Shown one piece after another: positions 22,745-46,900 of a stretch of DNA of 64,000 nt; position 1 is the stretch's first letter, and each line of letters begins with the position of its first letter. A model generated the notes under the pieces. It worked only from the letters and a program-made list of their open reading frames with translations, was not told where the DNA came from and ran no database searches. Origin of the DNA: Lycium barbarum (lineage: Eukaryota > Streptophyta > Magnoliopsida > Solanales > Solanaceae). Made by a program: the position numbers and the translations under genes. The stretch spans positions 47,220,938 to 47,284,937 of the forward strand of contig NC_083337.1 in assembly GCF_019175385.1 (NCBI RefSeq). Direction: 5' to 3'.

Positions 22745-23636
22745 CTATATGCATACAAGCAATAATACTCTAGTCACATAGGCTTCCATGACTACTCTCC
22801 AACACTTGTAACTTCAACTAAAACCATCACACTTTCATTATCAACATAGAACCCACAACAACAACAACTAAAACACTAAATAAACAATTCAATCATTGTT
22901 CTTGCAAACCACCCATACACACGGCCATATACACCTAACACACATTATCTTTCATGATTATCATGCATTTCTACACACCACAACATTCCCAAGCATCCAT
23001 AACATAGAAAGGAAGGTTAAATTCTTACCTTATTCCTTCAACTTCCCTCTTGGCTAAGGTTGCTAAATTGATGAAACGAACGTCTTATCTTTCGAAATAA
23101 CTACACCACGTTGTAGAGGGCCCTTGAATTAGTAGAAATACAACAAGAAAATAATTTTTGGGGCATGATTTCATGGGGGAAAAATCCCCCTACCTTGACC
23201 GAAATATGCTTGTTTTTTTTTTTTGTTCTTCATCTTCTTTCTCTTTCTTTCTTTCTCCCACTTTCTTGAATGTTCCAAATGGCCATGTGATGAATTTTCA
23301 TCCATGTGCCATATATTAAAAGATGAAATGGGACATGGCCCACACCCATGTGCATGGCACATGCCCCTTAGTTTTTCATTTCCTTTCTTTCTTTTTTTTT
23401 CATGAACAAATAATTCGCCAATTCCAATTTTGCCCTTGGCCTTTCACAATATTTCCTTGAGCCACTTTGTGAATTTCCTTTTTTTTTTTTTTTTACCCCT
23501 AACCTTTTCTCATATTTCCACATCCAAAATTTTCATAAACAATTTATGTATCAAACAAGATCAAAACGCAGCCTTGTCTTTAACTTGTCACAATTATTTC
23601 AAATTTTCCGAATACACAAAAATACGGGATATAACA
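22745..23636 (-). repeat. Array LTR L0 (truncated)
   Basis: The 892 bp nearest the sense start of the LTR, aligned with 27163-28059. It shares diagnostic variants with L3 (CTTACCTTATTCC, CCGAATACACAAA). The remainder was lost at the junction with element B's LTR. Confidence 0.88.
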
Positions 23637-24776
23637 TCCTCCCCCCCTTTAGAACATTCGTCCTCGAATGTTCAACTGACCTTATGGGGTGTCATAATAC
23701 TTCGGGAGGGTTCCTTCGCATAGTTGTCCTTTTCTTCATGCTCATCCCGGTTAAATCCGATATAATATGTTCTCCCCCCCCCCCCCCCCCTTTTAAGGGG
23801 CTCCTTATACGCCCACAGTCTCCGAGTACCCTTTACTTGATTGAGGCCTTCTTGACCGTAGCACCGGTTATTGGGTCTCACATGTTCACTGATACAATCA
23901 TAGATGCGATATCACATGCATTCATATGCATATATATATATATATATATAATTGCTATCAACTAGCCCACAAAAATACTCCCAAACTTTATTCAGGCCTA
24001 TCGAAATTCCAAAGCTGCGACGTACTTTCTGTCTCTTCTCTAGTCTGGCCTGTCGCGTGCTACATGGCCTTTTATGGTCTCCAACCGTCTCGTATATTCT
24101 AATTTCACTTAGGCTATTCTGGTTTTTCATTTGTCTTTAGACAGCTAAGTCTTTGGAATTTCTTGCATACTTCCCAGGGGGTCACCCATCCTGAAATTGC
24201 TCCCGCCTGAGCACGCTTAACCGTAAAACTACGATGGAATCCGGTGCCTTAATGCTGATATAATCGCGTCCGCTTTCTCGTATGTCCCTTATCACATACT
24301 CTGGAGCCAGGCAAAGTTTTACAAATTTCGAGACATGTTCGTAACACGTCCTTTTTGTATAATTACTATTTTACCCCTTTTGATTCTCAATAGTCACCTT
24401 TACAGATTCTTATCATTCAAGATCTGTACGCAGCAAATACCAACAATACCTTACAGTGCATGCAGCTACATATCACATCCTGGCCATCCAGAACTTTCTG
24501 TTTCCAGTAAAAGAACAAATATTTCCAAACTTGCCCTTGTGACCTTTCCATATCGTTACTTACCTTCTTTCGTCGTATGTAAGGCTTACATATGGAATTT
24601 CATTTTCCTATGACTTAGCTCAATCGCACGATCTTATGATAGAAAGAAGGTCAACAATCCCTAGATGTCCCGTAGCCTCCTGTTTATAAATGTGGCGCGC
24701 TTCACACCATAAAGTGAACTCTACCGGACACGACTTTGCAGACAACCCCTAGGACAGACCTGCTCTGATACCACTT
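23637..24776 (-). mobile_element. Array internal domain I1
   Basis: Plus-strand order: PPT complement (23637-23650), hairpin (23653-23672), a long C-run (about 23776-23791), an AT run (about 23929-23949), 5S-derived segment (24169-24271), leader, PBS complement (24762-24773). No coding sequence. Resembles I4 in the long C-run and in CATTTTCCTATG. Confidence 0.85.
24169..24271 (-). pseudogene. 5S rRNA-derived segment in I1
   Basis: On the minus strand the segment follows plant 5S rRNA from about nucleotide 1 (GGACGCGAT) to the CTGGGAAGT stretch, with the final part of the gene missing. By eye about three quarters of positions match. The pol III internal control boxes are best kept: box A GTTAAGCGTGCT and box C GGATGGGTGACC match the plant sequence as I know it; the intermediate element reads GCGGGAGC. 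The mature 3' end and a nearby T-run terminator are absent. It lies in the same sense as the element. Transcription is not shown. Confidence 0.8.
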
Positions 24777-27700
24777 TGTCACACCCTAATTCCGCTAGGG
24801 TGTGATGGGCACCCGACCCTTACCTTGGGCCGAGCAAACCCTCAGACTCTTGCTGCACATAAAATCACGTCAAACTTTTCAAATCAAATGAGATGAAATA
24901 TATCGTAAATTTTTTTTTTCCAGAAATATTCTTCCACGTAGCTTCCAAGCATAACAAATCTATAATCATACAAAATTCAGTACATAACGCAGACCGACAT
25001 TTCGGCTGACGGAGCCGCTTACGGACTGACAACCAATACCCACGACGCTGTCTGCAAAGTCTCTAACGTAATCCAGAGAGCATAACATACCAACTCTGAC
25101 TCGGCAGCACTCCGGGAACAAATGGAGCTTGTCATCTGCACTGGAACATCTTCTATACTGTCTTCAACTCACCTGGGAGTACCTGCGCGGCATGAAACGC
25201 AGCCCCCGAAGAAAGGGGGTCAGTACGAAATATGTACTGAGTATGCAAAGCATGAAGCACAGAAAACGAAGTCATAATCGAAGTAAAATGTACAGAAGGT
25301 GAGCACAATAACCAGAATACCAAAGTGTTTAATTTGACGTACAAATCATACATAGGAGGTTCCGGAAGAAAAATACGGCAATCAAAATGCCAAAATGCTT
25401 GCTTTCCTTTGAAAAACATTTCCGTCTCATACACGCAGAAAACTAGACACACAATTACCGCGACCAAAAGTCCAGCGATCACTGTCACATAGTGCGGCAT
25501 ACCGCGGTCAGGAGTCCAGCGGTCAATGTCGCACACACCGCGGTCAAGAATCCAGCGGTCAACATCACAAATGCGGCATACCGCGGTCAAGAATCCAGCG
25601 GCCAATGTCGCACACACCGCGGTCAAGAATCCAGTGGTCAATAACCAAATTTATTACTTTCCAAGCATAAATCACATATGTCAGAATCAGGCATTACACA
25701 TACATACAACGTGCCCCGGCCCTCGGTGAGGGACTCGGTGATTAGATTCATGTATGCCAAAATCGTATATCAGAAAAATACAGAAGGTAAGTAGCTTATC
25801 CAGAACATCAGAACACTTACTTTTCAATCACAAAGGATACATATCAAAGTCATGCAAAGGGCACAGGAACATGGTCGTCACTCCCGTCTCTGGCGCCATA
25901 ACACACCATACTCCAGAAGATTCCATAAAATGTACACGGTATCTCGGGAACCGGACATATAACACGAGAACCCGGGAACCAGTCAGATCATAATCCATAT
26001 ACACAGTAACTGGGGACGGACATATACCACAGTACCCAGAGCCGGATACATCATAGTTCGAAAATTACATACATGGAACCCGACTCCTAGACAAGGTACT
26101 CGGCGAACCATACGCACGATACATACCGGCCCGGAACTCGGTGAAAGGGATCATAGCATATATACGAGCGGAGTAGTAAGAAATTAGGTGCACATAAATC
26201 AAAACCCGGTAAAAGAATCGAATGTAGTATCAGGATATTCACATTAAGAAGCTTTCCAATGACTTATGGAACGAATCAAACGGAGTCTTAGATTCATAGA
26301 CGAAAGTCTTACTTTCATATCATACAAGGATAGCTCAAGTGAGACAAACGAAGGAAGTTTCGGAACTTGTGGGCCCACCTCGGGTCAAGTCGAGGTGGCG
26401 GATATAAATTACAAACATTGGACTCTATGGAGTCATCCAAGAAAGTTTCAAAGCAATCCGAATACGCTTGTGGAAGTTATGGATGTTTAGACACCTTTCC
26501 AACAAAACATAAGAATTATAGTTCAATTACATTGAACGAATAGTATTCAAAATCAAACTCGGGTTTCGATGGACAGAATTGTTCCCGAGGCTCAAGTCTT
26601 GAACTAGTATACATAGGACATGCCAAAAGAAGGAAATGGTGAGCTTTACATACCTCACTTGCGCCTTACGCTCGTCCGAACTCAATCCCCGTTTCGTCCA
26701 AAATCTACAATTTGTCATAGTTGCCAAATGTAAGTTTCAAGCTTAAATTCATATTGTCTACCGAAATTTCGGCAGCATTTCCCCAGTAAATTCAACATCC
26801 CCGAGAATCATCTCGGCCCAAAATATCAACAACAACAACCCAACAACAATACCAATAACATCAACGATCGAATTGAAACACATTCTAACATATGTTGTCT
26901 TCTTTTCTACATAACATATCAACTTCCAATCCGACTTCACACTTTCAAATCGATATCAACATTTTTGCATTCATACACTAATTTAAGATTATTCAAACAT
27001 AGGCCAAGAACATTTCAAGCAATCCATTCAATATTCAACAATTCCATCCCATATGCTATGCCACCCGAATTCTTCCAAATGGAATCACAACAACAACAAC
27101 ATATTTTCTTTCTCCAAGTTCATGAATTATTCTAACAATTCATACCTTAACAACATTATTTTCTATATGCATACAAGCAATAATACTCTAGTCACATAGG
27201 CTTCCATGACTACTCTCCAACACTTGTAACTTCAACTAAAACCATCACACTTTCATTATAAACATAGAACCCACAACAACAACAACTAAAACACTAAATA
27301 AACAATTCAATCATTGTTCTTGCAAACCACCCATACACACGGCCATATACACCTAACACACATTATCTTTCATGATTATCATGCATTTGTACACACCACA
27401 ACATTCCCAAGCATCCATAACATAGAAAGGAAGGTTAAATTCTTACCTTTTTCCTTCAACTTCCCTCTTGGCTAAGGTTGCTAAATTGATGAAACGAACG
27501 TCTTATCTTTCGAAATAACTACACCACGTTGTAGAGGGCCCTTGAATTAGTAGAAATACAACAAGAAAATAATTTTTGGGGCATGATTTCATGGGGGAAA
27601 AATCCCCCTACCTTGACCGAAATATGTTTTTTTTTTTTTTTGTTCTTCATCTTCTTTCTCTTTCTTTCTTTCTCCCACTTTCTTGAATGTTCCAAATGGC

Positions 27701-28059
27701 CATGTGATGAATTTTCATCCATGTGCCATATATTAAAAGATGAAATGGGACATGGCCCACACCCATGTGCATGGCACATGCCCCTTAGTTTTTCATTTCC
27801 TTTCTTTCTTTTTTTTTCATGAACAAATAATTCGCCAATTCCAATTTTGCCCTTGGCCTTTCACAATATTTCCTTGAGCCACTTTGTGAATTTCCTTTTT
27901 TTTTTTTTTTTTTTTTTACCCCTAACCTTTTCTCATATTTCCACATCCAAAATTTTCATAAACAATTTATGTATCAAACAAGATCAAAACGCAGCCTTGT
28001 CTTTAACTTGTCACAATTATTTCAAATTTTCCGAATACGCAAAAATACGGGATATAACA
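24777..28059 (-). repeat. Array LTR L1
   Basis: 3283 bp, plus-strand ends TGTCACACCC and GATATAACA. Double hairpin at 25203-25239 (CCCCC/GGGGG and CAGTAC/GTACTG). Minisatellite at 25457-25640 with CCGCGGTCAAGAATCCAGCG units of about 30-45 bp. Its first kilobase carries variants shared with L4 (CTTACGGACTG, CACCTGGGAG). Confidence 0.9.
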
Positions 28060-28339
28060 TCCTCCCCCCCTTTAGAACATTCGTCCTCGAATGTTCAACT
28101 GACCTTATGGGGTGTCATAATACTTCGGGAGGGTTCCTTCGCATAGTTGTCCTTTTCTTCATGCTCATCCCGGTTAAATCCGATATAATATGTTCTCCCC
28201 CCCTTTTAAGGGGCTCCTTATACGCCCACAGTCTCCGAGTACCCTTTACTTGATTGAGGCCTTCTTGACCGTAGCACCGGTTATTGGGTCTCACATGTTC
28301 ACTGATACAATCATAGATGCGATATCACATGCATTCATA

Positions 28340-28404
<65 letters not shown>

Positions 28405-29231
28405 AATTGCTATCAACTAGCCCACAAAAATACTCCCAAACTTTATTCAGGCCTATCGAAATTCCAAAGCTGCGACGTACTTTCTGTCTCTTCTCTAGTC
28501 TGGCCTGTCGCGTGCTCCATGGCCTTTTATGGTCTCCAACCATCTCGTATATTCTAATTTTACTTAGGCTATTCTGGTTTTTCATTTGTCTTTAGACAGC
28601 TAAGTCTTTGGAATTTCTTGCATACTTCCCAGGGGGTCACCCATCCTGAAATTGCTCCCGCCTGAGCACGCTTAACCGTAAAACTTCGATGGAATCCGGT
28701 GCCTTAATGCTGATATAATCGCGTCCGCTTTCTCGTATGTCCCTTATCACATACTCTGGAGCCAGTCAAAGTTTTACAAATTTCGAGACATGTTTGTAAC
28801 ACGTCCTTTTTGTATAATTACTATTTTACCCCTTTTGATTCTCAATAGTCACCTTTACAGATTCTTATCATTCAAGATCTGTACGCAGCAAATACCAACA
28901 ATACCTTACAGTGCATGCAGCTACATATCACATCCTGGCCATCCAGAACTTTCTGTTTCCAGTAAAAGAACAAATATTTCCAAACTTGCCCTTGTGACCT
29001 TTCCATATCGTTACTTACCTTCTTTCGTCGTATGTAAGGCTTACATATGGAATTTCATTTTTCTATGACTTAGCTCTATCGCACGATCTTATGATAGAAA
29101 GAAGGTCAACAATCCCTAGATGTCCCGTAGCCTCCTGTTTATAAATGTGGCGCGCTTCACACCATAAAGTGGACTCTACCGGACACGACTTTGCAGACAA
29201 CCCCTAGGACAGACCTGCTCTGATACCACTT
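28060..29231 (-). mobile_element. Array internal domain I2
   Basis: Same order as I1: PPT complement, hairpin (28076-28095), short C-run, long AT run (about 28342-28402), 5S-derived segment, PBS complement just before 29232. Shares GTGCTCCATGG and CATGTTTGTAAC with I3. Confidence 0.85.
28624..28726 (-). pseudogene. 5S rRNA-derived segment in I2
   Basis: As in I1, with one change (AACTTCGATGG instead of AACTACGATGG on the plus strand). Box A and box C are unchanged. Confidence 0.8.
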
Positions 29232-32200
29232 TGTCACACCCTAATTCCGCTAGGGTGTGATGGGCACCCGACCCTTACCTTGGGCCGAGCGAACCCTCAG
29301 ACTCTTGCTGCACATAAAATCACGTCAAACTTTTCAAATCAAATGAGATGAAATATATCGTAATTTTTTTTTTCCAGAAATATTCTTCCACGTAGCTTCC
29401 AAGCATAACAAATCTATAATCATACAAAATTCAGTACATAACGCAGACCGACATTTCGGCTGACGGAGCCGCTTACAGACTGACAACCAATACCCACGAC
29501 GCTGTCTGCAAAGTCTCTAACGTAATCCAGAGAGCATAACATACCAACTCTGACTCGGCAGCACTCCGGGAACAAATGGAGCTTGCCATCTGCACTGGAA
29601 CATCTTCTATACTGTCTTCAACTCACCTTGGAGTACCTGCGCGGCATGAAACGCAGCCCCCGAAGAAAGGGGGTCAGTACGAAATATGTACTGAGTATGC
29701 AAAGCATGAAGTACAGAAAACGAAGTCATAATCGAAGTAAAATGTACAGAAGGTGAGCACAATAACCAGAATACCAAAGTGTTGCATTTGACGTACAAAT
29801 CATACATAGGAGGTTCCGGAAGAAAAATACGGCAATCAAAATGCCAAAATGCTTGCTTTCCTTTGAAAAACATTTCCGTCTCATACACGCAGAAAACTAG
29901 ACACACAATTACCGCGACCAAAAGTCCAGTGATCACTGTCACATAGTGCGGCATACCGCGGTCAGGAGTCCAGCGGTCAATGTCGCACACACCGCGGTTA
30001 AGAATCCAGCGGTCAACATCACAAATGCGGCATACCGCGGTCAAGAATCCAGCGGCCAATGTCGCACACACCGCGGTCAAGAATCCAGTGGTCAATAACC
30101 AAATTTATTACTTTCCAAACATAAATCACATATGTCAGAATCAGGCATTACACATACATACAACATGCCCCGGACCTCGGTGAGGAACTCGGTGATTAGA
30201 TTCATGTATGCCAAAATCGTATATCAGAAAAATACAGAAGGTAAGTAGCTTATCCAGAACATCAGAACACTTACTTTTCAATCACAAAGGATACATATCA
30301 AAGTCATGCAAAGGGCACAGGAACATGGTCGTCACTCCCGTCTCTGGCGCCATAACACACCATACTCCAGAAGATTCCATAAAATGTACACGGTATCTTG
30401 GGTACCGGACATATAACACGAGAACCCGGGAACCAGTCACATCATAATCCATATACACAGTAACTGGGGACGGACATATACCACAGTACCCCAGAGCCGG
30501 ATACATCATAGTTCGAAAATTACATACATGGAACCCGACTCCTAGACAAGGTACTCGGCGAACCATACGCACGATACATACCGGCCCGGAACTCGGTGAA
30601 AGGGATCATAGCATATATACAAGCGGAGTAGTAAGAAATTAGGTGCACATAAATCAAAACCCGGTAAAAGAATCGAATGTAGTATCAGGATATTCACATT
30701 AAGGAGCTTTCCAATCACTTATGGAACGAATCAAACGGAGTCTTAGATTCATAGACGAAAGTCTTACTTTCATATCATACAAGGATAGCTCAAGTGAGAC
30801 AAACGAAGGAAGTTTCGGAACTTGTGGGCCCACCTCGGGTCAAGTCGAGGTGGCGGATATAAATTACAAACATTGGACTCTATGGAGTCATCCAAGAAAG
30901 TTTCAAAGCAATCCGAATACGCTTGTGGAAGTTATGGATGTTTAGACACCTTTCCAACAAAACATAAGAATTATAGTTCAATTACATTGAACGAATAGTA
31001 TTCAAAATCAAACTCGGGTTTCGATGGACAGAATTGTTCCCGAGGCTCAAGTCTTGAACTAGTATACATAGGACATGCCAAAAGAAGGAAATGGTGAGCT
31101 TTACATACCTCACTTGCGCCTTACGCTCGTCCGAACTCAATCCCCGTTTCGTCCAAAATCTACAATTTGTCATAGTTGCCAAATGTAAGTTTCAAGCTTA
31201 AATTCATATTGTCTACCGAAATTTCGGCAGCATTTCCCCAGTAAATTCAACATCCCCGAGAATCATCTCGGCCCAAAATATCAACAACAACAACCCAACA
31301 ACAATACCAATAACATCAACGATCGAATTGAAACACATTCTAACATATGTTGTCTTCTTTTCTACATAACATATCAACTTCCAATCCGACTTCACACTTT
31401 CAAATCGATATCAACATTTTTGCATTCATACACTAATTTAAGATTATTCAAACATAGGCCAAGAACATTTCAACCAATCCATTCAATATTCAACAATTCC
31501 ATCCCATATGCTATGCCACCCGAATTCTTCCAAATGGAATCACAACAACAACAACATATTTTCTTTCTCCAAGTTCATGAATTATGCTAACAATTCATAC
31601 CTTAACAACATTATTTTCTATATGCATACAAGCAATAATACTCTAGTCACATAGGCTTCCATGACTACTCTCCAACACTTGTAACTTCAACTAAAACCAT
31701 CACACTTTCATTATCAACATAGAACCCACAACAACAACAACTAAATCACTAAATAAACAATTCAATCATTGTTCTTGCAAACCACCCATACACACGGCCA
31801 TATACACCTAACACACATTATCTTTCATGATTATCATGCATTTCTACACACCACAACATTCCCAAGCATCCATAACATAGAAAGGAAGGTTAAATTCTTA
31901 CCTTTTTCCTTCAACTTCCCTCTTGGCTAAGGTTGCTAAATTGATGAAACGAACGTCTTATCTTTCGAAATAACTACACCACGTTGTAGAGGGCCCTTGA
32001 ATTAGTAGAAATACAACAAGAAAATAATTTTTGGGGCATGATTGCATGGGGGAAAATCCCCCTACCTTGACCGAAATATGCTTGTTTTGTTTTTTTTAGT
32101 TCTTCATCTTCTTTCTCTTGCTTTCTTTCTCCCACTTTCTTGAATGTTCCAAATGGCCATGTGATGAATTTTCATCCATGTGCCATATATTAAAAGATGA

Positions 32201-32503
32201 AATGGGACATGGCCCACACCCATGTGCATGGCACATGCCCCTTAGTTTTTCATTTCCTTTTTTTTTTTCATGAACAAATAATTCGCCAATTCCAATTTTG
32301 CACTTGGCCTTTCACAATATTTCCTTGAGCCACTTTGTGAATTTCCTTTTTTTTTTTTTTTACCCCTAACCTTTTCTCATATTTCCACATCCAAAATTTT
32401 CATAAACAATTTATGTATCAAACAAGATCAAAACGCAGCCTTGTCTTTAACTTGTCACAATTATTTCAAATTTTTCGAATACGCAAAAATACGGGATATA
32501 ACA
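29232..32503 (-). repeat. Array LTR L2
   Basis: 3272 bp. Double hairpin 29657-29693; minisatellite 29911-30094. Start variants (CTTACAGACTG, CACCTTGGAG) are shared with L3; its far end (CATGATTGCATGG, TTTTTCGAATACG) is shared with L4. Confidence 0.9.
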
Positions 32504-32783
32504 TCCTCCCCCCCTTTAGAACATTCGTCCTCGAATGTTCAACTGACCTTATGGGGTGTCATAATACTTCGGGAGGGTTCCTTCGCATAGTTGTCCTTTT
32601 CTTCATGCTCATCCCGGTTAAATACGATATAATATGTTCTCCCCCCCTTTTAAGGGGATCCTTATACGCCCACAGTCTCCGAGTACCCTTTACTTGATTG
32701 AGGCCTTCTTGACCGTAGCACCGGTTATTGGGTCTCACATGTTCACTGATACAATCATAGATGCGATATCACATGCATTCATA

Positions 32784-32852
<69 letters not shown>

Positions 32853-33679
32853 AATTGCTATCAACTAGCCCACAAAAATACTCCCAAACTTTATTCAGGC
32901 CTATCGAAATTCCAAAGCTGCGACGTACTTTCTGTCTCTTCTCTAGTCTGGCCTGTCGCGTGCTCCATGGCCTTTTATGGTCTCCAACCATCTCGTATAT
33001 TCTAATTTCACTTAGGCTATTCTGGTTTTTCATTTGTCTTTAGACAGCTAAGTCTTTGGAATTTCTTGCATACTTCCCAGGGGGTCACCCATCCTGAAAT
33101 TGCTCCCGCCTGAGCACGCTTAACCGTAAAACTTCGATGGAATCCGGTGCCTTAATGCTGATATAATCGCGTCCGCTTTCTCGTATGTCCCTTATCACAT
33201 ACTCTGGAGCCAGTCAAAGTTTTACAAATTTCGAGACATGTTTGTAACACGTCCTTTTTGTATAATTACTATTTTACCCCTTTTGATTCTCAATAGTCAC
33301 CTTTACAGATTCTTATCATTCAAGATCTGTACGCAGCAAATACCAACAATACCTTACAGTGCATGCAGCTACATATCACATCCTGGCCATCCAGAACTTT
33401 CTGTTTCCAGTAAAAGAACAAATATTTCCAAACTTGCCCTTGTGACCTTTCCATATCGTTACTTACCTTCTTTCGTCGTATGTAAGGCTTACATATGGAA
33501 TTTCATTTTTCTATGACTTAGCTCTATCGCACGATCTTATGATAGAAAGAAGGTCAACAATCCCTAGATGTCCCGTAGCCTCCTGTTTATAAATGTGGCG
33601 CGCTTCACACCATAAAGTGGACTCTACCGGACACGACTTTGCAGACAACCCCTAGGACAGACCTGCTCTGATACCACTT
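32504..33679 (-). mobile_element. Array internal domain I3
   Basis: Hairpin at 32520-32539, AT run about 32786-32850 (the longest in the array), 5S-derived segment, PBS complement before 33680. Shares AAATACGATATAAT with I5 only. Confidence 0.85.
33072..33174 (-). pseudogene. 5S rRNA-derived segment in I3
   Basis: Same sequence as the I2 copy by eye, control boxes unchanged. Confidence 0.8.
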
Positions 33680-36600
33680 TGTCACACCCTAATTCCGCTA
33701 GGGTGTGATGGGCACCCGACCCTTACCTTGGGCCGAGCGAACCCTCAGACTCTTGCTGCACATAAAATCACGTCAAACTTTTCAAATCAAATGAGATGAA
33801 ATATATCGTAATTTTTTTTTTCCAGAAATATTCTTCCACGTAGCTTCCAAGCATAACAAATCTATAATCATACAAAATTCAGTACATAACGCAGACCGAC
33901 ATTTCGGCTGACGGAGCCGCTTACAGACTGACAACCAATACCCACGACGCTGTCTACAAAGTCTCTAACGTAATCCAGAGAGCATAACATACCAACTCTG
34001 ACTCGGCAGCACTCCGGGAACAAATGGAGCTTGCCATCTGCACTGGAACATCTTCTATACTGTCTTCAACTCACCTTGGAGTACCTGCGCGGCATGAAAC
34101 GCAGCCCCCGAAGAAAGGGGGTCAGTACGAAATATGTACTGAGTATGCTAAAGCATGAAGTACAGAAAACGAAGTCATAATCGAAGTAAAATGTACAGAA
34201 GGTGAGCACAATAACCAGAATACCAAAGTGTTGCATTTGACGTACAAATCATACATAGGAGGTTCCGGAAGAAAAATACGGCAATCAAAATGCCAAAATG
34301 CTTGCTTTCCTTTGAAAAACATTTCCGTCTCATACACGCAGAAAACTAGACACACAATTACCGCGACCAAAAGTCCAGTGATCACTGTCACATAGTGCGG
34401 CATACCGCGGTCAGGAGTCCAGCGGTCAATGTCGCACACACCGCGGTCAAGAATCCAGCGGTCAACATCACAAATGCGGCATACCGCGATCAAGAATCCG
34501 GCGGCCAATGTCGCACACACCGCGGTCAAGAATCCAGTGGTCAATAACCAAATTTATTACTTTCCAAACATAAATCACATATGTCAGAATCAGGCATTAC
34601 ACATACATACAACGTGCCCCGGACCTCGGTGAGGAACTCGGTGATTAGATTCATGTATGCCAAAATAGTATATCAGAAAAATACAGAAGGTAAGTAGCTT
34701 ATCCAGAACATCAGAACACTTACTTTTCAATCACAAAGGATACATATCAAAGTCATGCAAAGGGCACAGGAACATGGTCGTCACTCTCGTCTCTGGCGCC
34801 ATAACACACCATACTCCAGAAGATTCCATAAAATGTATACGGTATCTCGGGAACCGGACATATAACACGAGAACCCGGGAACCAGTCACATCATAATCCG
34901 TATACATAGTAACTGGGGACGGACATATACCACAGTACCCCAGAGCCGGATACATCATAGTTCGAAAATTACATACACGGAACCCGACTCCTAGACAAGG
35001 TACTCGGCGAACCTTACGCACGATACATACCGGCCCGGAACTCGGTGAAAGGGATCATAGCATATATACGAGCGGAGTAGTAAGAAATTAGGTGCACATA
35101 AATCAAAACCCGGTAAAAGAATCGAATGTATTATCAGGATATTCACATTAAGGAGCTTTCCAATGACTTATGGAACGAATCAAACGTAGTCTTAGATTCA
35201 TAGACGAAAGTCTTACTTTCATATCATACAAGGATAGCTCAAGTGAGACAAACGAAGGAAGTTTCGAAACTTGTGGGCCTACCTCGGGTCAAGTCGAGGT
35301 GGCGGATATAAATTACAAACATTGGACTCTATGGAGTCATCCAAGAAAGTTTCAAAGCAATCCGAATACGCTTGTGGAAGTTATGGATGTTTAGACACCT
35401 TTCCAACAAAACATAAGAATTATAGTTCAATTACATTGAACGAATAGTATTCAAAATCAAACTCGGGTTTCGATGGACAGAATTGTTCCCGAGGCTCAAG
35501 TCTTGAACTAGTATACATAGGACATGCCAAAAGAAGGAAATGGTGAGCTTTACATACCTCACTTGCGCCTTACGCTCGTCCGAACTCAATCCCCGTTTCG
35601 TCAAAAATCTACAATTGGTCATAGTTGCCAAATGTAAGTTTCAAGCTTAAATTCATATTGTCTACCGAAATTTCGGCAGCATTTCCCCTGTAAATTCAAC
35701 GTCCCCGAGAATCATCTCGGCCCAAAATATCAACAACAACAACCCAACAACAATACCAATAACATCAACGATCGAATTGAAACACATTCTAACATATGTT
35801 GTCTTCTTTTCTACATAACATATCAACTTCCAATCCGACTTCACACTTTCAAATCGATATCAACATTTTTGCATTCATACACTAATTTAAGATTATTCAA
35901 ACATAGGCCAAGAACATTTCAAGCAATCCATTCAATATTCAACAATTCCATCCCATATGCTATGCCACCCGAATTCTTCCAAATTGAATCACAACAACAA
36001 CAACATATTTTCTTTCTTCAAGTTCATGAATTATGCTAACAATTCATACCTTAAAAGCATTATTTTCTATATGCATACAAGCAATAATACTCTAGTCACA
36101 TAGGCTTCCATGACTACTCTCCAACACTTGTAACTTCAACTAAAACCATCACACTTTCATTATCAACATAGAACCCACAACAACAACAACTAAAACACTA
36201 AATAAACAATTCAATCATTGTTCTTGCAAACCACCCATACACACGGCCATATACACCTAACACACATTATCTTTCATGATTATCATGCATTTCTACACAC
36301 CACAACATTCCCAAGCATCCATAACATAGAAAGGAAGGTTAAATTCTTACCTTATTCCTTCAACTTCCCTCTTGGCTAAGGTTGCTAAATTGATGAAACG
36401 AACGTCTTATCTTTCGAAATAACTACACCACGTTGTAGAGGGCCCTTGAATTAGTAGAAATACAACAAGAAAATAATTTTTGGGGCATGATTTCATGGGG
36501 GAAAAATCCCCCTACCTTGACCGAAATATGCTTGTTTTTTTTTTTTAGTTCTTCATCTTCTTTCTCTTTCTTTCTTTCTCCCACTTTCTTGAATGTTCCA

Positions 36601-36958
36601 AATGGCCATGTGATGAATTTTCATCCATGTGCCATATATTAAAAGATGAAATGGGACATGGCCCACACCCATGTGCATGGCACATGCCCCTTAGTTTTTC
36701 ATTTCCTTTCTTTCTTTTTTTTCATGAACAAATAATTCGCCAATTCCAATTTTGCCCTTGGCCTTTCACAATATTTCCTTGAGCCACTTTGTGAATTTCC
36801 TTTTTTTTTTTTTTTTACCCCTAACCTTTTCTCATATTTCCACATCCAAAATTTTCATAAACAATTTATGTATCAAACAAGATCAAAACGCAGCCTTGTC
36901 TTTAACTTGTCACAATTATTTCAAATTTTCCGAATACACAAAAATACGGGATATAACA
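33680..36958 (-). repeat. Array LTR L3
   Basis: 3279 bp. Double hairpin 34105-34141; minisatellite 34360-34543. The start resembles L2 and the far end resembles L0, so it looks recombinant between unit types. Confidence 0.9.
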
Positions 36959-37246
36959 TCCTCCCCCCCTTTAGAACATTCGTCCTCGAATGTTCAACTG
37001 ACCTTATGGGGTGTCATAATACTTCGGGAGGGTTCCTTCGCATAGTTGTCCTTTTCTTCATGCTCATCCCGGTTAAATCCGATATAATATGTTCTCCCCC
37101 CCCCCCCCCCTTTTAAGGGGCTCCTTATACGCCCACAGTCTCCGAGTACCCTTTACTTGATTGAGGCCTTCTTGACCGTAGCACCGGTTATTGGGTCTCA
37201 CATGTTCACTGATACAATCATAGATGCGATATCACATGCATTCATA

Positions 37247-37289
<43 letters not shown>

Positions 37290-38116
37290 AATTGCTATCA
37301 ACTAGCCCACAAAAATACTCCCAAACTTTATTCAGGCCTATCGAAATTCCAAAGCTGCGACGTACTTTCTGTCTCTTCTCTAGTCTGGCCTGTCGCGTGC
37401 TACATGGCCTTTTATGGTCTCCAACCATCTCGTATATTCTAATTTCACTTAGGCTATTCTGGTTTTTCATTTGTCTTTAGACAGCTAAGTCTTTGGAATT
37501 TCTTGCATACTTCCCAGGGGGTCACCCATCCTGAAATTGCTCCCGCCTGAGCACGCTTAACCGTAAAACTTCGATGGAATCCGGTGCCTTAATGCTGATA
37601 TAATCGCGTCCGCTTTCTCGTATGTCCCTTATCACATACTCTGGAGCCAGTCAAAGTTTTACAAATTTCGAGATATGTTCGTAACACGTCCTTTTTGTAT
37701 AATTACTATTTTACCCCTTTTGATTCTCAATAGTCACCTTTACAGATTCTTATCATTCAAGATCTGTACGCAGCAAATACCAACAATACCTTACAGTGCA
37801 TGCAGCTACATATCACATCCTGGCCATCCAGAACTTTCTGTTTCCAGTAAAAGAACAAATATTTCCAAACTTGCCCTTGTGACCTTTCCATATCGTTACT
37901 TACCTTCTTTCGTCGTATGTAAGGCTTACATATGGAATTTCATTTTCCTATGACTTAGCTCTATCGCACGATCTTATGATAGAAAGAAGGTCAACAATCC
38001 CTAGATGTCCCGTAGCCTCCTGTTTATAAATGTGGCGCGCTTCACACCATAAAGTGGACTCTACCGGACAGGACTTTGCAGACAACCCCTAGGACAGACC
38101 TGCTCTGATACCACTT
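36959..38116 (-). mobile_element. Array internal domain I4
   Basis: Hairpin 36975-36994, long C-run (about 37097-37110), AT run about 37248-37287, 5S-derived segment, PBS complement before 38117. Shares the long C-run and CATTTTCCTATG with I1. Confidence 0.85.
37509..37611 (-). pseudogene. 5S rRNA-derived segment in I4
   Basis: Same as the I2 and I3 copies by eye; control boxes unchanged. Confidence 0.8.
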
Positions 38117-41100
38117 TGTCACACCCTAATTCCGCTAGGGTGTGATGGGCACCCGACCCTTACCTTGGGCCGAGCGAACCCTCAGACTCTTGCTGCACAT
38201 AAAATCACGTCAAACTTTTCAAATCAAATGAGATGAAATATATCGTAAATTTTTTTTTTCCAGAAATATTCTTCCACGTAGCTTCCAAGCATAACAAATC
38301 TATAATCATACAAAATTCAGTACATAACGCAGACCGACATTTCGGCTGACGGAGCCGCTTACGGACTGACAACCAATACCCACGACGCTGTCTGCAAAGT
38401 CTCTAACGTAATCCAGAGAGCATAACATACCAACTCTGACTCGGCAGCACTCCGGGAACAAATGGAGCTTGTCATCTGCACTGGAACATCTTCTATACTG
38501 TCTTCAACTCACCTGGGAGTACCTGCGCGGCATGAAACGCAGCCCCCGAAGAAAGGGGGTCAGTACGAAATATGTACTGAGTATGCAAAGCATGAAGTAC
38601 AGAAAACGAAGTCATAATCGAAGTAAAATGTACAGAAGGTGAGCACAATAACCAGAATACCAAAGTGTTTCATTTGACGTACAAATCATACATAGGAGGT
38701 TCCGGAAGAAAAATACGGCAATCAAAATGCCAAAATGCTTGCTTTCCTTTGAAAAACATTTCCGTCTCATACACGCAGAAAACTAGACACACAATTACCG
38801 CGACCAAAAGTCCAGCGATCACTGTCACATAGTGCGGCATACCGCGGTCAGGAGTCCAGCGGTCAATGTCGCACACACCGCGGTCAAGAATCCAGCGGTC
38901 AACATCACAAATGCGGCATACCGCGGTCAAGAATCCAGCGGCCAATGTCGCACAAACCGCGGTCAAGAATCCAGTGGTCAATAACCAAATTTATTACTTT
39001 CCAAACATAAATCACATATGTCAGAATCAGGCATTACACATACATACAACGTGCCCCGGCCCTCGGTGAGGGACTCGGTGATTAGATTCATGTATGCCAA
39101 AATCGTATATCAGAAAAATACAGAAGGTAAGTAGCTTATCCAGAACATCAGAACACTTACTTTTCAATCACAAAGGATACATATCAAAGTCATGCAAAGG
39201 GCACAGGAACATGGTCGTCACTCCCGTCTCTGGCGCCATAACACACCATACTCCAGAAGATTCCATAAAATGTACACGGTATCTCGGGAACCGGACATAT
39301 AACACGAGAACCCGGGAACCAGTCACATCATAATCCATATACACAGTAACTGGGGACGGACATATACCACAGTACCCCAGAGCCGGCTACATCATAGTTC
39401 GAAAATTACATACATGGAACCCGACTCCTAGACAAGGTACTCGGCGAACCATACGCACGATACATACCGGCCCGGAACTCGGTGAAAGGGATCATAGCAT
39501 ATATACAAGCGGAGTAGTAAGAAATTAGGTGCACATAAATCATAACCCGGTAAAAGAATCGAATGTAGTATCAGGATATTCACATTAAGGAGCTTTCCAA
39601 TGACTTATGGAACGAATCAAACGGAGTCTTAGATTCATAGACGAAAGTCTTACTTTCATATCATACAAGGATAGCTCAAGTGAGACAAACGAAGGAAGTT
39701 TCGGAACTTGTGGGCCCACCTCGGGTCAAGTCGAGGTGGCGGATATAAATTACAAACATTGGACTCTATGGAGTCATCCAAGAAAGTTTCAAAGCAATCC
39801 GAATACGCTTGTGGAAGTTATGGATGTTTAGACACCTTTCCAACAAAACATAAGAATTATAGTTCAATTACATTGAACGAATAGTATTCAAAATCAAACT
39901 CGGGTTTCGATGGACAGAATTGTTCCCGAGGCTCAAGTCTTGAACTAGTATTCATAGGACATGCCAAAAGAAGGAAATGGTGAGCTTTACATACCTCACT
40001 TGCGCCTTACGCTCGTCCGAACTCAATCCCCGTTTCGTCCAAAATCTACAATTTGTCATAGTTGCCAAATGTAAGTTTCAAGCTTAAATTCATATTGTCT
40101 ACCGAAATTTCGGCAGCATTTCCCCAGTAAATTCAACATCCCCGAGAATCATCTCGGCCCAAAATATCAACAACAACAACCCAACAACAATACCAATAAC
40201 ATCAACGATCGAATTGAAACACATTCTAACATATGTTGTCTTCTTTTCTACATAACATATCAACTTCCAATCCGACTTCACACTTTCAAATCGATATCAA
40301 CATTTTTGCATTCATACACTAATTTAAGATTATTCAAACATAGGCCAAGAACATTTCAAGCAATCCATTCAATATTCAACAATTCCATCCCATATGCTAT
40401 GCCACCCGAATTCTTCCAAATGGAATCACAACAACAACAACATATTTTCTTTCTCCAAGTTCATGAATTATGCTAACAATTCATACCTTAACAACATTAT
40501 TTTCTATATGCATACAAGCAATAATACTCTAGTCACATAGGCTTCCATGACTACTCTCCAACACTTGTAACTTCAACTAAAACCATCACACTTTCATTAT
40601 CAACATAGAACCCACAACAACAACAACTAAATCACTAAATAAACAATTCAATCATTGTTCTTGCAAACCACCCATACACACGGCCATATACACCTAACAC
40701 ACATTATCTTTCATGATTATCATGCATTTCTACACACCACAACATTCCCAAGCATCCATAACATAGAAAGGAAGGTTAAATTCTTACCTTTTTCCTTCAA
40801 CTTCCCTCTTGGCTAAGGTTGCTAAATTGATGAAACGAACGTCTTATCTTTCGAAATAACTACACCACATTGTAGAGGGCCCTTGAATTAGTAGAAATAC
40901 AACAAGAAAATAATTTTTGGGGCATGATTGCATGGGGGAAAATCCCCCTACCTTGACCGAAATATGCTTGTTTTTTTTTTTTTAGTTCTTCATCTTCTTT
41001 CTCTTGCTTTCTTTCTCCCACTTTCTTGAATGTTCCAAACGGCCATGTGATGAATTTTCATCCATGTGCCATATATTAAAAGATGAAATGGGACATGGCC

Positions 41101-41390
41101 CACACCCATGTGCATGGCACATGCCCCTTAGTTTTTCATTTCCTTTTTTTTTTCATGAACAAATAATTCGCCAATTCCAATTTTGCACTTGGCCTTTCAC
41201 AATATTTCCTTGAGCCACTTTGTGAATTTCCTTTTTTTTTTTTTTTTTACCCCTAACCTTTTCTCATATTTCCACATCCAAAATTTTCATAAACAATTTA
41301 TGTATCAAACAAGATCAAAACGCAGCCTTGTCTTTAACTTGTCACAATTATTTCAAATTTTTCGAATACGCAAAAATACGGGATATAACA
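38117..41390 (-). repeat. Array LTR L4
   Basis: 3274 bp. Double hairpin 38543-38579; minisatellite 38797-38980. Start variants as in L1, far end as in L2. Confidence 0.9.
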
Positions 41391-42515
41391 TCCTCCCCCC
41401 CTTTAGAACATTCGTCCTCGAATGTTCAACTGACCTTATGGGGTGTCATAATACTTCGGGAGGGTTCCTTCGCATAGTTGTCCTTTTCTTCATGCTCATC
41501 CCGGTTAAATACGATATAATATGTTCTCCCCACCCCCTTTTAAGGGGCTCCTTATACGCCCACAGTCTCCGAGTACCCTTTACTTGATTGAGGCCTTCTT
41601 GACCGTAGCACCGGTTATTGGGTCTCACATGTTCACTGATACAATCATAGATGCGATATCACATGCATTCATATGCATATATATATCTAATTGCTATCAA
41701 CTAGCCCACAAAAATACTCCCAAACTTTATTCAGGCCTATCGAAATTCCAAAGCTGCGACGTACTTTCTGTCTCTTCTCTAGTCTGGCCTGTAGCGTGCT
41801 ACATGGCCTTTTATGGTCTCCAACCATCTCGTATATTCTAATTTCACTTAGGCTATTCTGGTTTTTCATTTGTCTTTAGACAGCTATGTCTTTGGAATTT
41901 CTTGCATACTTCCCAGGGGGTCACCCATCCTGAAATTGCTCCCGCCTGAGCACGCTTAACCGTAAAACTTCGATGGAATCCGGTGCCTTAATGCTGATAT
42001 AATCGCGTCCGCTTTCTCGTATGTCCCTTATCACATACTCTGGAGCCAGTCAAAGTTTTACAAATTTCGAGACATGTTCGTAACACGTCCTTTTTGTATA
42101 ATTACTATTTTACCCCTTTTGATTCTCAATAGTCACCTTTACATATTCTTATCATTCAAGATCTGTACGCAGCAAATATCAACAATACCTTACAGTGCAT
42201 GCAGCTACATATCACATCCTGGCCATCCAGAACTTTCTGTTTCCAGTTAAAGAACAAATATTTCCAAACTTGCCCTTGTGACCTTTCCATATCGTTACTT
42301 ACCTTCTTTCGTCGTATGTAAGGCTTACATATGGAATTTCATTTTTCTATGACTTAGCTCTATCGCACGATCTTATGATAGAAAGAAGGTCAACAATCCC
42401 TAGATGTCCCGTAGCCTCCTGTTTATAAATGTGGCGCGCTTCACACCATAAAGTGGACTCTACCGGACACGACTTTGCAGACAACCCCTAGGACAGACCT
42501 GCTCTGATACCACTT
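41391..42515 (-). mobile_element. Array internal domain I5
   Basis: Hairpin 41407-41426, C-run interrupted by A (CCCCACCCCC near 41527), AT run shrunk to about 10 bp near 41678, 5S-derived segment, PBS complement before 42516. Shares AAATACGATATAAT with I3. Confidence 0.85.
41908..42010 (-). pseudogene. 5S rRNA-derived segment in I5
   Basis: Same as the I2-I4 copies by eye; control boxes unchanged. Confidence 0.8.
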
Positions 42516-45389
42516 TGTCACACCCTAATTCCGCTAGGGTGTGATGGGCACCCGACCCTTACCTTGGGCCGAGCGAACCCTCAGACTCTTGCTGCACATA
42601 AAATCAAGTCAAACTTTTCAAATCAAATGAGATGAAATACATCGTAGCTTCCAAGCATAACAAATCTATAATCATACAAAATTCAGTACATAATGCAGAC
42701 CGACATTTCGGCTGACGGAGCCGCTTACAGACTGACAACCAATACCCACGACGTTGTCTGCAAAGTCTCTAACGTAATCCAGAAAGCATAACATACCAAC
42801 TCTGACTCGGCAGCACTCCGGGAACAAATGGAGCTTGCCATCTGCACTGGAACATCTTCTATACTGTCTTCAACTCACCTGGGTCAAGAATCCAGCGGTC
42901 AACATCACAAATGCGGCATACCGCGGTCAAGAATCCAGCGGCCAATGTCGCACACACCGCGGTCAAGAATCCAGCCGTCAATAACCAAATTTATTACTTT
43001 CCAAACATAAATCACATATGTCAGAATCAGGCATTACACATACATACAACGTGCCCCTGCCCTCGGTGAGGGACTCGGTGATTAGATTCATGTATGCCAA
43101 AATCGTATATCAGAAAAATACAGAAGGTAAGTAGCTTATCCAGAACATCAGAACACTTACTTTTCAATCACAAAGGATACATATCAAAGTCATGCAAAGG
43201 GCACAGGAACATGGTCGTCACTCCCGTCTCTGGCGCCATAACACACCATACTCCAGAAGATTCCATAAAATGTACACGGTATCTCGGGAACCGGACATAT
43301 AACACGAGAACCCGGGAACCAGTCACATCATAATCCATATACACAGTAACTGGGGACGGACATATACCACAGTACCCCAGAGCCGGCTACATCATAGTTC
43401 GAAAATTACATACATGGAACCCGACTCCTAGACAAGGTACTCGGCGAACCATACGCACGATACATACCGGCCCGGAACTCGGTGAAAGGGATCATAGCAT
43501 ATATACAAGCGGAGTAGTAAGAAATTAGGTGCACATAAATCATAACCCGGTAAAAGAATCGAATGTAGTATCAGGATATTCACATTAAGGAGCTTTCCAA
43601 TGACTTATGGAACGAATCAAACGGAGTCTTAGATTCATAGACGAAAGTCTTACTTTCATATCATACAAGGATAGCTCAAGTGAGACAAACGAAGGAAGTT
43701 TCGGAACTTGTGGGCCCACCTCGGGTCAAGTCGAGGTGGCGGATATAAATTACAAACATTGGACTCTATGGAGTCATCCAAGAAAGTTTCAAAGCAATCC
43801 GAATACGCTTGTGGAAGTTATGGATGTTTAGACACCTTTCCAACAAAACATAAGAATTATAGTTCAATTACATTGAACGAATAGTATTCAAAATCAAACT
43901 CGGGTTTCGATGGACAGAATTGTTCCCGAGGCTCAAGTCTTGAACTAGTATACATAGGACATGCCAAAAGAAGGAAATGGTGAGCTTTACATACCTCACT
44001 TGCGCCTTACGCTCGTCCGAACTCAATCCCCGTTTCGTCCAAAATCTACAATTGGTCATAGTTGCCACATGTAAGTTTCAAGCTTAAATTCATATTGTCT
44101 ACCGAAATTTCGGCAGCATTTCCCCTGTAAATTCAACATCCCCGAGAATCATCTCGGCCCAAAATATCAACAACAACAACCCAACAACAATACCAATAAC
44201 ATCAACGATCGAATTGAAACACATTCTAACATATGTTGTCTTCTTTTCTACATAACATATCAACTTCCAATCCGACTTCACACTTTCAAATCGATATCAA
44301 CATTTTTGCATTCATACACTAATTTAAGATTATTCAAACATAGGCCAAGAACATTTCAAGCAATCCATTCAATATTCAACAATTCCATCCCATATGCTAT
44401 GCCACCCGAATTCTTCCAAATGGAATCACAACAACAACATATTTTCTTTCTCCAAGTTTATGAATTATGCTAACAATTCATACCTTAACAACATTATTTT
44501 CTATATGCATACAAGTAATAATACTCTAGTCACATAGGCTTCCATGACTACTCTCCAACACTTGTAACTTCAACTAAAACCATCACACTTTCATTATCAA
44601 CATAGAACCCACAACAACAACAACTAAATCACTAAATAAACAATTCAATCATTGTTCTTGCAAACCACCCATACACACGGCCATATACACCTAACACACA
44701 TTATCTTTCATGATTATCATGCATTTCTACACACCACAACATTCCCAAGCATCCATAACATAGAAAGGAAGGTTAAATTCTTACCTTTTTCCTTCAACTT
44801 CCCTCTTGGCTAAGGTTGCTAAATTGATGAAACGAACGTCTTATCTTTCGAAATAACTACACCACGTTGTAGAGGGCCCTTGAATTAGTTGAAATACAAC
44901 AAGAAAATAATTTTTGGGGCATGATTTCATGGGGGAAAATCCCCCTACCTTGACCGAAATATGCTTGTTTATTTTTTTTTAGTTCTTCATCTTCTTTCTC
45001 TTGCTTTCTTTCTCCCACTTTCTTGAATGTTCCAAATGGCCATGTGATGAATTTTCATCCATGTGCCATATATTAAAAGATGAAATGGGACATGGCCCAC
45101 ACCCATGTGCATGGCACATGCCCCTTAGTTTTTCATTTCCTTTTTTTTTTTCATGAACAAATAATTCGCCAATTCCAATTTTGCCCTTGGCCTTTCACAA
45201 TATATCCTTGAGCCACTTTGTGAATTTCCTTTTTTTTTTTTTTTTTACCCCTAACCTTTTCTCATATTTCCACATCCAAAATTTTGATAAACAATTTATG
45301 TATCAAACAAGATCAAAACGCAGCCTTGTCTTTAACTTGTCACAATTATTTCAAATTTTTTCGAATACGCAAAAATACGGGATATAACA
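42516..45389 (-). repeat. Array LTR L5, internally deleted
   Basis: 2874 bp, about 400 bp shorter than its siblings. A deletion of about 33 bp near 42653 joins two CGTA copies. One of about 370 bp at about 42882 removes the double hairpin and part of the minisatellite (remaining 42882-42980). Its terminus at 45389 abuts ACCGG of element B's LTR. Confidence 0.88.
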
Positions 45390-46321: not shown

Positions 46322-46692
46322 CTGCGTTTCATGCCGCGCAGGTCAGCAGACAGGCGGGTTTGGTTCTTAGGAGCTCTACCAGCAGCACTTGACAGCGCTC
46401 CAGTTGTTCCGGAGCCTCACTTCCTTGGGACTATTTTGTGTATATATATATTCGGGCACGGCAGTACTCAGCCCTTTCTATGTATATGTGTACTATGTCT
46501 AGAGGCTCGTAGGCAGATATGTACAGGTAGAGGTCTTGTATTTTGAATTGTTCGCGTCTCTGTATAATGTGACAGCAAGTTTAGCACAGTTCATACTGCC
46601 TGCTGAGAAGTAAAGGTAAAAATGATAGATAAGGGGTGCTCGGTTAAAGTATCGGGTACTCGTCACGGCCCCTAGTCTGGTCGTGACAGAAG

Positions 46693-46704
46693 TGGTATCA
46701 GAGC
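46693..46704 (+). other. Primer-binding site, initiator tRNA-Met type
   Basis: TGGTATCAGAGC, four bases after the LTR end. The leader to 46900 contains the conserved GATCGTGCGATAGAGCTATGTTA block. Confidence 0.92.
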
Positions 46705-46900
46705 AGTTCGGTCCTAGGGGTTTGTCTACGAGCCGTGTCCAGTAGAGTCTTGTTTATGGGTGTGTAGTGCGCCACACTTATAAACAGGAGGCTGCAGGGC
46801 ATTTAGGAAATATGACTTTCTTTGTCTTCTAGATCGTGCGATAGAGCTATGTTACCAGGCTTCCTTGTTCTTTTCTTAATTCTATGTTACAATTTCAGTA

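What the first reader, a model, noticed from the sequence alone, without database searches (positions are those of the whole stretch)
24169..42010. 5S rRNA-derived segment inside each internal domain, with pol III control boxes preserved
About 100 bases of each internal domain follow plant 5S rRNA in the element's own sense. Box A (GTTAAGCGTGCT) and box C (GGATGGGTGACC) match while the flanks have drifted. Cassandra TRIM elements are known to carry 5S, but in short LTRs; here it lies between PBS and PPT of an element with 3.3-kb LTRs. The array thus gives five phased 5S-like promoters at 4.4-kb spacing.
Basis: partly seen in the sequence, partly recalled or inferred. Interest (0 to 1): 0.88.

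Follow-up and report, generated by a model that had tools for sequence, protein, structure and literature searches.

The report
Captured 5S promoter inside giant retrotransposons
Many protein-poor jumping genes in this plant carry a captured piece of the 5S ribosomal RNA gene in their middle, and its control boxes have stayed almost unchanged while everything around them drifted, so the boxes are probably used for something.

Summary
Five minus-strand segments match this genome's own 5S rRNA gene over nt 1-103 (79-80% identity, E 8e-20), each between the PBS and PPT of an element with LTRs of about 3.3 kb; boxes A and C are exact in all five. The class is genome-wide: 10,755 exactly spaced box pairs (reversed control 0) against 252 exact 5S cores; 7 of the first 8 places examined are copies of this module. 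Its carriers are pol-less relatives of a chromovirus: of 42 loci picked by the PPT alone, 14 of 23 without pol carry the segment and 0 of 15 with a long pol match do. On a tree from flanks only (31 copies), box columns changed 0.35 times against 3.38 elsewhere (0 of 20,000 permutations), which indicates purifying selection. It is not Cassandra: the 5S is not in the LTR. Best reading: one old capture of 5S nt 1-103, kept as a TFIIIA-binding, pol III-type element; a role in the RNA is the main rival. Transcription could not be tested.

The parts
24169..24271 (-). 5S-derived segment, unit 1 (box C 24180-24191, box A 24210-24221)
   Evidence: blastn 79% to own 5S nt 1-103; boxes
28624..28726 (-). 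5S-derived segment, unit 2 (box C 28635-28646, box A 28665-28676)
33072..33174 (-). 5S-derived segment, unit 3 (box C 33083-33094, box A 33113-33124)
37509..37611 (-). 5S-derived segment, unit 4 (box C 37520-37531, box A 37550-37561)
41908..42010 (-). 5S-derived segment, unit 5 (box C 41919-41930, box A 41949-41960)
48546..48648 (+). sixth 5S-derived segment, in element B (box A 48596-48607; box C region 48626-48637 with one mismatch)
   Evidence: blastn hit 48596-48646; boxes; extent to nt 1-103 by end-to-end fit
23637..24776 (-). internal domain of unit 1 (PPT 23637-23665, PBS 24762-24773)
   Evidence: PBS/PPT/LTR edge positions
28060..29231 (-). internal domain of unit 2 (PPT 28060-28088, PBS 29217-29228)
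32504..33679 (-). internal domain of unit 3 (PPT 32504-32532, PBS 33665-33676)
36959..38116 (-). internal domain of unit 4 (PPT 36959-36987, PBS 38102-38113)
41391..42515 (-). internal domain of unit 5 (PPT 41391-41419, PBS 42501-42512)
22745..23636 (-). truncated last LTR of the array (892 bp)
24777..28059 (-). shared LTR between units 1 and 2 (3283 bp)
   Evidence: pairwise K2P of the array LTRs 0.006-0.016
29232..32503 (-). shared LTR between units 2 and 3
33680..36958 (-). shared LTR between units 3 and 4
38117..41390 (-). shared LTR between units 4 and 5
42516..45389 (-). 5' LTR of the array (2.87 kb, shorter than the others); starts TGTTATATCC, then joins the LTR of element B
46691..49039 (+). 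internal domain of element B (5' edge approximate): PBS 46693-46704, gag ORF 47159-48415 (PF03732, zf-CCHC), 5S segment, PPT 49011-49039; no pol ORF found
53743..63822 (+). element C, chromovirus with RT, RNase H, integrase and chromodomain matches; same PPT, PBS and LTR start as the array and B, but no 5S segment

Best explanation
The five segments belong to a large class of pol-less derivatives of chromovirus-type (probably Tekay/Del) LTR retrotransposons. SHOWN in this genome: the copies examined share a 5S module (5S nt 1-103, sense strand, plus common flanks) upstream of the PPT; box A and box C, and to a lesser degree the intermediate element, changed about ten times less than the rest, which indicates purifying selection; exactly spaced box pairs number about ten thousand. 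INFERRED: the module came once from a 5S transcript, by template switching during reverse transcription (the homology starts at nt 1 and stops at nt 103). INFERRED: the boxes bind TFIIIA on the integrated DNA and nucleate a TFIIIC/TFIIIB/pol III complex in the internal domain. The full genomic RNA would still be made by pol II from the LTR. The pol III site would add either a short sense RNA starting at the segment's first base or an open, silencing-resistant patch of chromatin that helps these parasites of autonomous elements stay expressed.
For: Homology. Class size: 10,755 exactly spaced box pairs, control 0, against 252 exact 5S cores; 14,062 with at most one mismatch in the 16 box bases, control 2, which by simple arithmetic is about 1.9% change per box base. 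Position and sense: 22 of 66 PPT sites in the first 33.6 Mb of C1 have a box pair upstream on the same strand within 6 kb, 2 of 66 downstream, 0 of 66 on the opposite strand. Link to pol loss: 14 of 23 PPT loci without pol against 0 of 15 with a long pol match (Fisher 1e-4). Selection: in the 14 loci found by PPT and not by boxes, identity to 5S is 164/168 in box A (51-62) and 301/308 in 82-103, but 428/700 in nt 1-50, 45/98 in 63-69 and 61/126 in 73-81, with 38/42 in 70-72; among themselves 0.956 in box columns and 0.667 elsewhere. Spacing is nearly fixed: 10,755 at N19 of 11,335 for N2-19. The least diverged copies examined (L089, L090) are 89-90% identical over nt 1-103 and have the same flanking module.
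Against: No transcript, TFIIIA or pol III data. TTTT inside the would-be transcript in 4 of 16 copies examined, including the array family at +44; no shared terminator (T4-5 near +113 in 5 of 16; none before the PPT in 3 of 16). A subfamily with 9 nt less between the boxes has itself multiplied (6 of about 100 listed matches; L084, L061, L094), so TFIIIA spacing is not absolute. Boxes A and C are also RNA-contact regions of 5S rRNA (recalled), so conservation alone does not separate DNA from RNA function. Of the 31 copies in the tree, 15 were found by probe, pattern or coordinates that depend on the boxes; the 14 PPT copies were not. Only 22 of the 100 box pairs listed on C1 have an exact PPT match within 6 kb downstream, so the element type of the others is inferred from their module letters and from 7 of 8 loci.
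Confidence: 0.55

Rival explanations
1. The segment works in the RNA: in the full-length pol II transcript it is a 5S-like hook that binds TFIIIA or ribosomal protein L5 and helps export, stability or packaging of the genomic RNA.
For: Helix IV pairing is kept (148 of 152 cells) and helix III mostly (207 of 247; 5 of 300 shuffles reach this) (slid partners at most 0.63 for helix III). Pairing in helices I and V, though low, is slightly above shuffles (1 and 0 of 300 reach it). Changes on both sides relative to 5S at pairs 31-46, 34-41 and 29-48. TFIIIA is also an RNA-binding protein (recalled), and its 7ZF form is reported to serve viroid replication by pol II (PMC8909551, abstract in a search listing only). 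A plant 5S mimic in the TFIIIA intron is known (recalled).
Against: Less than half of the cells pair in helices I and V (133/278 and 55/153). Helix II and IV pairing is not above shuffles (22 and 149 of 300 reach it). The 5' partner strands drift while the box strands hardly do, which suits DNA recognition better. By eye, free folds of six copies do not look like 5S. Shuffles do not correct for relatedness, so the small excesses are weak evidence either way.
Confidence: 0.25
2. Relic without function: one founder had drifted flanks and intact boxes by luck, and recent bursts copied that state.
For: The copies in the window are young (array LTR K2P 0.006-0.016; element B pieces 0.015-0.021), so much of the similarity is recent.
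Against: The 31 copies differ from each other by about 29-36% in the flanks and in the non-box parts of the segment, yet by only 2-3% in the boxes, on a tree that did not use the segment; the score distribution of PPT-ascertained loci is two-peaked (14 at 30 or more, 28 at 2 or less) without intermediates.
Confidence: 0.1
3. The elements are Cassandra or another TRIM with a pol III promoter in the LTR, misread because of the array.
For: Same 5S source, same iMet-type PBS motif, and Cassandra also forms shared-LTR arrays (PMC7215508, passages).
Against: The LTRs are 3.3 kb and show no 5S hit; the PBS lies 490 bp upstream of the segment, not within 5-200 bp downstream of it as in the Cassandra search pattern of PMC7215508. 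Element B, L082, L084 and L092 carry gag.
Confidence: 0.03

Closest known systems
Cassandra (TRIM, plants)
   Same: 5S-derived sequence with conserved promoter boxes, iMet-type PBS motif, non-autonomous, shared-LTR tandem arrays (PMC10853983 and PMC7215508, passages)
   Different: In Cassandra the 5S is in the LTRs and the element is 565-860 bp (PMC10886601); here it is single, internal, upstream of the PPT, in elements of about 7.7 kb (two LTRs plus one internal domain) with 3.3-kb LTRs; some relatives have gag
Ajax and Helenus (TRIMp3)
   Same: Small-RNA-gene promoter in a non-autonomous LTR element; in Ajax only the box A-IE-box C part of 5S remains (PMC10886601, parts 1-4 of 6 read)
   Different: Promoter in the LTR, elements about 0.3-1.3 kb, from fungi, animals and one lycophyte; that paper suggests that pol III processivity limits element length, which would not explain elements of this size
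SINE3
   Same: 5S-derived pol III promoter in a retroelement
   Different: SINE3 is a non-LTR element with the 5S-derived promoter in its head (PMC10886601); here the segment is internal to LTR elements with PBS and PPT
LARDs and gag-only derivatives of LTR retrotransposons
   Same: Long LTRs, pol-less internal domain, presumably mobilised in trans
   Different: The passages on LARDs that I read (PMC7215508) mention no 5S module in them
P5SM, the 5S mimic in the plant TFIIIA intron (recalled)
   Same: 5S-derived sequence used outside rDNA in plants
   Different: Acts as RNA in splicing control; a gene part, not mobile

Membership tests
Cassandra | 5S sequence inside the LTRs | tested here: not met
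   Segment lies in the internal domain in all five units and in element B; blastn finds no other 5S hit in the window
Cassandra | TRIM size (under about 1 kb, short LTRs) | tested here: not met
   LTRs 3.27-3.28 kb, internal 1.13-1.18 kb
Cassandra | iMet-type PBS shortly downstream of the 5S | tested here: not met
   PBS motif present but 490 bp upstream of the segment in unit 2
TRIMp3 (pol III-promoted TRIMs) | pol III promoter in the LTR of a miniature element | tested here: not met
Non-autonomous chromovirus derivatives | PPT, PBS and LTR start shared with an autonomous-type chromovirus | tested here: met
   Same PPT block, TGGTATCAGAGC and TGTTATATCC in the array and B as in element C; C has RT, RNase H and H2C2 above cut-off and a below-cut-off integrase core, and PF00385 Chromo
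Non-autonomous chromovirus derivatives | no pol | tested here: met
   tblastn with the gag of B and pol of C finds nothing in L013, which spans the internal domain of unit 1; B has gag and no pol ORF. Class level: 0 of 14 segment-bearing PPT loci match pol in the stretch fetched
Tekay/Del lineage in particular | RT phylogeny | not tested
   Name recalled from the PPT motif and long LTRs; no RT tree was built
Functional 5S gene | 5S_rRNA model at gathering score | tested here: not met
   28.2 bits against 38
Active pol III promoter | transcripts, TFIIIA/TFIIIC occupancy | not testable with these tools
   no RNA or chromatin data

The most novel reading that the evidence does not exclude
Long-LTR, pol II-transcribed retrotransposon parasites have kept, over many family splits, a second promoter-type element outside the LTR: a captured TFIIIA site in the internal domain, multiplied to about ten thousand copies, which is transcribed by pol III or used as an anti-silencing or TFIIIA hook. 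In the papers I could search, no TFIIIA-type module in the body of an LTR retrotransposon is described, so it may be the first.
Probability: 0.5. Interest if true: 0.82.

Novelty: new variant of a known kind. Interest (0 to 1): 0.7.

Why it matters
The 5S-carrying LTR elements in the papers read hold the promoter in short LTRs, and their small size is explained there by the weak reach of pol III. Here the boxes are conserved where a pol III start could not make a replicable genomic RNA, so they should serve something else: a short RNA, chromatin opening, or an RNA hook. About ten thousand near-identical TFIIIA-type sites spread over a plant genome, against 252 exact 5S cores, also raise the question of competition for TFIIIA. 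In addition, such copies may be counted as 5S in repeat surveys. Small-RNA or nascent-RNA data for the species would test it.

Tried and rejected
Rfam at gathering score finds nothing in the window. The idea that the 1.1-kb part might be the LTR and the 3.3-kb part the internal domain (ambiguous in a tandem array) was rejected from the PBS, PPT and LTR edges shared with elements B and C. Search for the segment in element C: none. Base pairing of 5S helices: no clear signal; III, I and V lie slightly above shuffles, II and IV do not. Upstream TATA-like position (-28) and terminators: suggestive at most, not used. One search was meant as a Cassandra-like pattern but was off by one base in spacing; it is used only as a count of shorter spacing (152, control 14). 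A core pattern with GAGNAAT between the boxes in IMG/VR: 0 matches. Literature: the listings (several capped, e.g. 15 of 832) and the papers opened from them showed no description of a 5S segment in the internal domain of a long-LTR element; unlisted papers and subscription journals are not covered. Species: not identified (one search did not settle it).

Selections made: the 16 representatives include one 5S-like copy (L044) that later calls leave out. Searches use all 14 PPT-ascertained copies, the window's unit 2 (A) and B, and 10 or 15 further copies that I chose from loci fetched by probe, pattern or coordinates (L094 left out). Of the places listed, the first 42 were fetched (30 as loci, 12). 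Among these, L050 (cut by the edge of its stretch) and L087 (15-nt match, E 0.009) were not counted as carrying the segment.
Full report
WHAT IS THERE. The genome's own 5S rRNA gene was located with Rfam RF00001 and compared with the window. Boxes GTTAAGCGTGCT and GGATGGGTGACC are exact in the five. As a 5S RNA the segment is degraded: nothing at the Rfam gathering score, 28.2 bits against 38 with the relaxed threshold.

ANATOMY. The array runs from 22745 to 45389 on the minus strand. PBS (TGGTATCAGAGC), PPT (GAGGACGAATGTTCTAAAGGGGGGGAGGA in unit 2) and LTR start (TGTTATATCC) are found for every unit, giving internal domains of 1.13-1.18 kb and four complete LTRs of 3.27-3.28 kb. In unit 2 the segment lies 490 bp after the PBS and 535 bp before the PPT. 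The left LTR is truncated to 892 bp and the right LTR is 2.87 kb. The array lies inside the LTR of a second element, B, on the other strand: 22205-22744 and 45387-46578 match 49037-49586 and 50909-52110 at 96%. B has a gag ORF (PF03732, CCHC), no pol ORF, and the sixth 5S segment between gag and the PPT. A third element, C (53743-63822), has the same PPT, PBS and LTR start and matches RT, RNase H, H2C2, integrase core (below cut-off) and chromodomain models, but has no 5S segment. So the array and B look like non-autonomous relatives of a chromovirus; the name Tekay/Del is recalled from the PPT motif and was not tested by phylogeny. Array LTRs differ from each other by K2P 0.006-0.016 and the LTRs of C by 0.018: these are young copies.

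THE CLASS IS GENOME-WIDE. The spaced pattern AAGCGTGCT-N19-GATGGGT occurs 10,755 times (5456 + 5299; reversed control 0 + 0). An exact 42-nt 5S core occurs 252 times (163 + 89); about 80 of the roughly 100 places listed there lie in one array on C6. Allowing one mismatch in the 16 box bases gives 14,062 (control 2), by simple arithmetic about 1.9% change per box base. The letters between the boxes differ among the listed matches and show several families. Of the first eight places, read with 1.5 kb on each side (L039-L046), seven are copies of this module and one (L044) is a stray 5S-like copy, 93% over nt 1-119. The PPT pattern occurs 8,062 times (control 0). Joining the two lists on C1 up to 33.6 Mb, 22 of 66 PPT sites have a box pair upstream on the same strand within 6 kb, 2 of 66 downstream, and 0 of 66 on the opposite strand. 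Conversely only 22 of the 100 listed box pairs have an exact PPT match downstream, so for the rest the element type is inferred. The distances cluster (about 346, 480, 595, 1345 and 2000-2140 bp, and others), so there are several structural families.

WHO CARRIES IT. To avoid choosing copies by their boxes, 42 loci were taken by the PPT alone (30 with 1.5 kb upstream, and 12 with 2.6 kb). An end-to-end fit of 5S nt 1-103 is two-peaked: 14 of 42 score 30-61, the other 28 score 2 or less, and reversed or complemented controls reach 1. Fifteen of the 42 match at least 200 residues of the pol of C, four more match only short pol or chromodomain pieces, and 23 match neither. All 14 segments are in those 23; none is in the 15 (Fisher 1e-4). 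The stretch examined is limited: five more of the 42 have a box pair further upstream by coordinates (L050, L053, L059, L068, L075); two of these (L053, L059) keep short chromodomain or pol pieces near the PPT, and none is among the 15. gag lies upstream of the segment in B, L082, L084 and L092 and in L039 and L040. Twenty-six loci fetched with a unit-2 probe (L013-L038) showed no gag or pol match within 1.5 kb.

SELECTION ON THE BOXES. In the 14 PPT-ascertained copies, identity to 5S is 164/168 in box A (51-62), 301/308 in 82-103, 38/42 in 70-72 (within the intermediate element), but 428/700 in 1-50, 45/98 in 63-69 and 61/126 in 73-81. Among themselves they agree at 0.956 in box columns and 0.667 elsewhere, 0 of 20,000 permutations reaching this. 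On a tree built only from flanking columns of 31 copies, box A columns changed 0.33 times, columns 82-103 0.36, the three intermediate-element columns 1.0, against 2.9 (nt 1-50), 3.3 (between boxes), 3.7 (upstream) and 3.4 (downstream); 0 of 20,000 permutations. Fifteen of the 31 copies were found by probe, pattern or coordinates that depend on the boxes; the 14 were not. Spacing between the boxes is N19 in 10,755 of 11,335 matches with N2-19. One subfamily with 9 nt less has nevertheless multiplied: 6 of about 100 places listed.

ORIGIN. Two copies of one family (L089, L090) are 89-90% identical to 5S over nt 1-103. The homology starts at nt 1, with no similarity to the rDNA spacer visible upstream (by eye), and ends at nt 103. 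A start at the first base of the transcript fits a 5S RNA copied by template switching in the particle; this is an inference. The flanks align among the copies examined (pairwise identity 0.64-0.66; for example B against L043, 72% over about 330 bp, E 5e-44), which points to one capture.

HOW IT MAY WORK. Conserved box A, intermediate element and box C with fixed spacing are what TFIIIA needs on DNA (established knowledge, recalled). A pol III start here cannot give a complete genomic RNA, so the site would act beside the pol II LTR promoter: a short sense RNA or a patch of open chromatin. Against a plain pol III transcript stand TTTT within the segment in 4 of 16 copies (the array family at +44), no common terminator, and the short-spacing subfamily. 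The RNA model (a TFIIIA or L5 hook in the genomic RNA) has helix IV and part of helix III for it; in helices I and V fewer than half of the cells pair, though slightly more than in shuffles. I put the DNA model at 0.55 and the RNA model at 0.25.

COMPARISON. Cassandra, Ajax and Helenus carry their promoter in short LTRs (PMC10886601, parts 1-4 of 6 read; PMC10853983 and PMC7215508, passages). The Cassandra search pattern of PMC7215508 asks for the PBS 5-200 bp after the 5S; here the PBS is upstream. Membership in Cassandra is therefore rejected, while the working principle (a captured 5S promoter in a non-autonomous LTR element) is the same. The passages on 5S that I saw in PMC7076952 (pepper), PMC4524691 (Solanum repeats), PMC6387171 (Allium) and PMC3095306 (Asteraceae rDNA) do not describe such a structure. 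The literature searches cover an open-access library only, and I saw their listed rows, not every paper counted.

LIMITS. One genome, unnamed; no RNA data; the PPT sample comes from the first part of one contig; the non-PPT copies were chosen by hand.

Noticed in passing
22205-22744, 45387-46578, 49037-52110: The array is nested in the LTR of element B; at its left junction about 1.3 kb of B's LTR and about 2.4 kb of the array's last LTR are missing, as if one deletion spanned the junction.
   Followed up: partly
G000:C1:29426645-29442132: Seven PPT sites in one orientation, five of the six gaps 2071-2073 bp: looks like another shared-LTR tandem array of a shorter element.
   Followed up: no
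G000:C6:25569053-25630225: The 5S rDNA array changes orientation near 25.584 and 25.592 Mb.
   Followed up: no
L084, L061, L094: Subfamily of the 5S module with 9 nt less between box A and box C that has itself amplified.
   Followed up: partly
28343-28402 and L096 2227-2286 (as oriented): An AT-rich tract in the array's internal domain recurs in a distant segment-bearing element; may be chance.
   Followed up: no
-30 to -1 relative to the segment, copies: The bases just upstream of the segment are moderately conserved (about 0.60-0.67 identity; ATGTGA-like block near -27) and by eye do not resemble the 5S rDNA spacer.
   Followed up: partly
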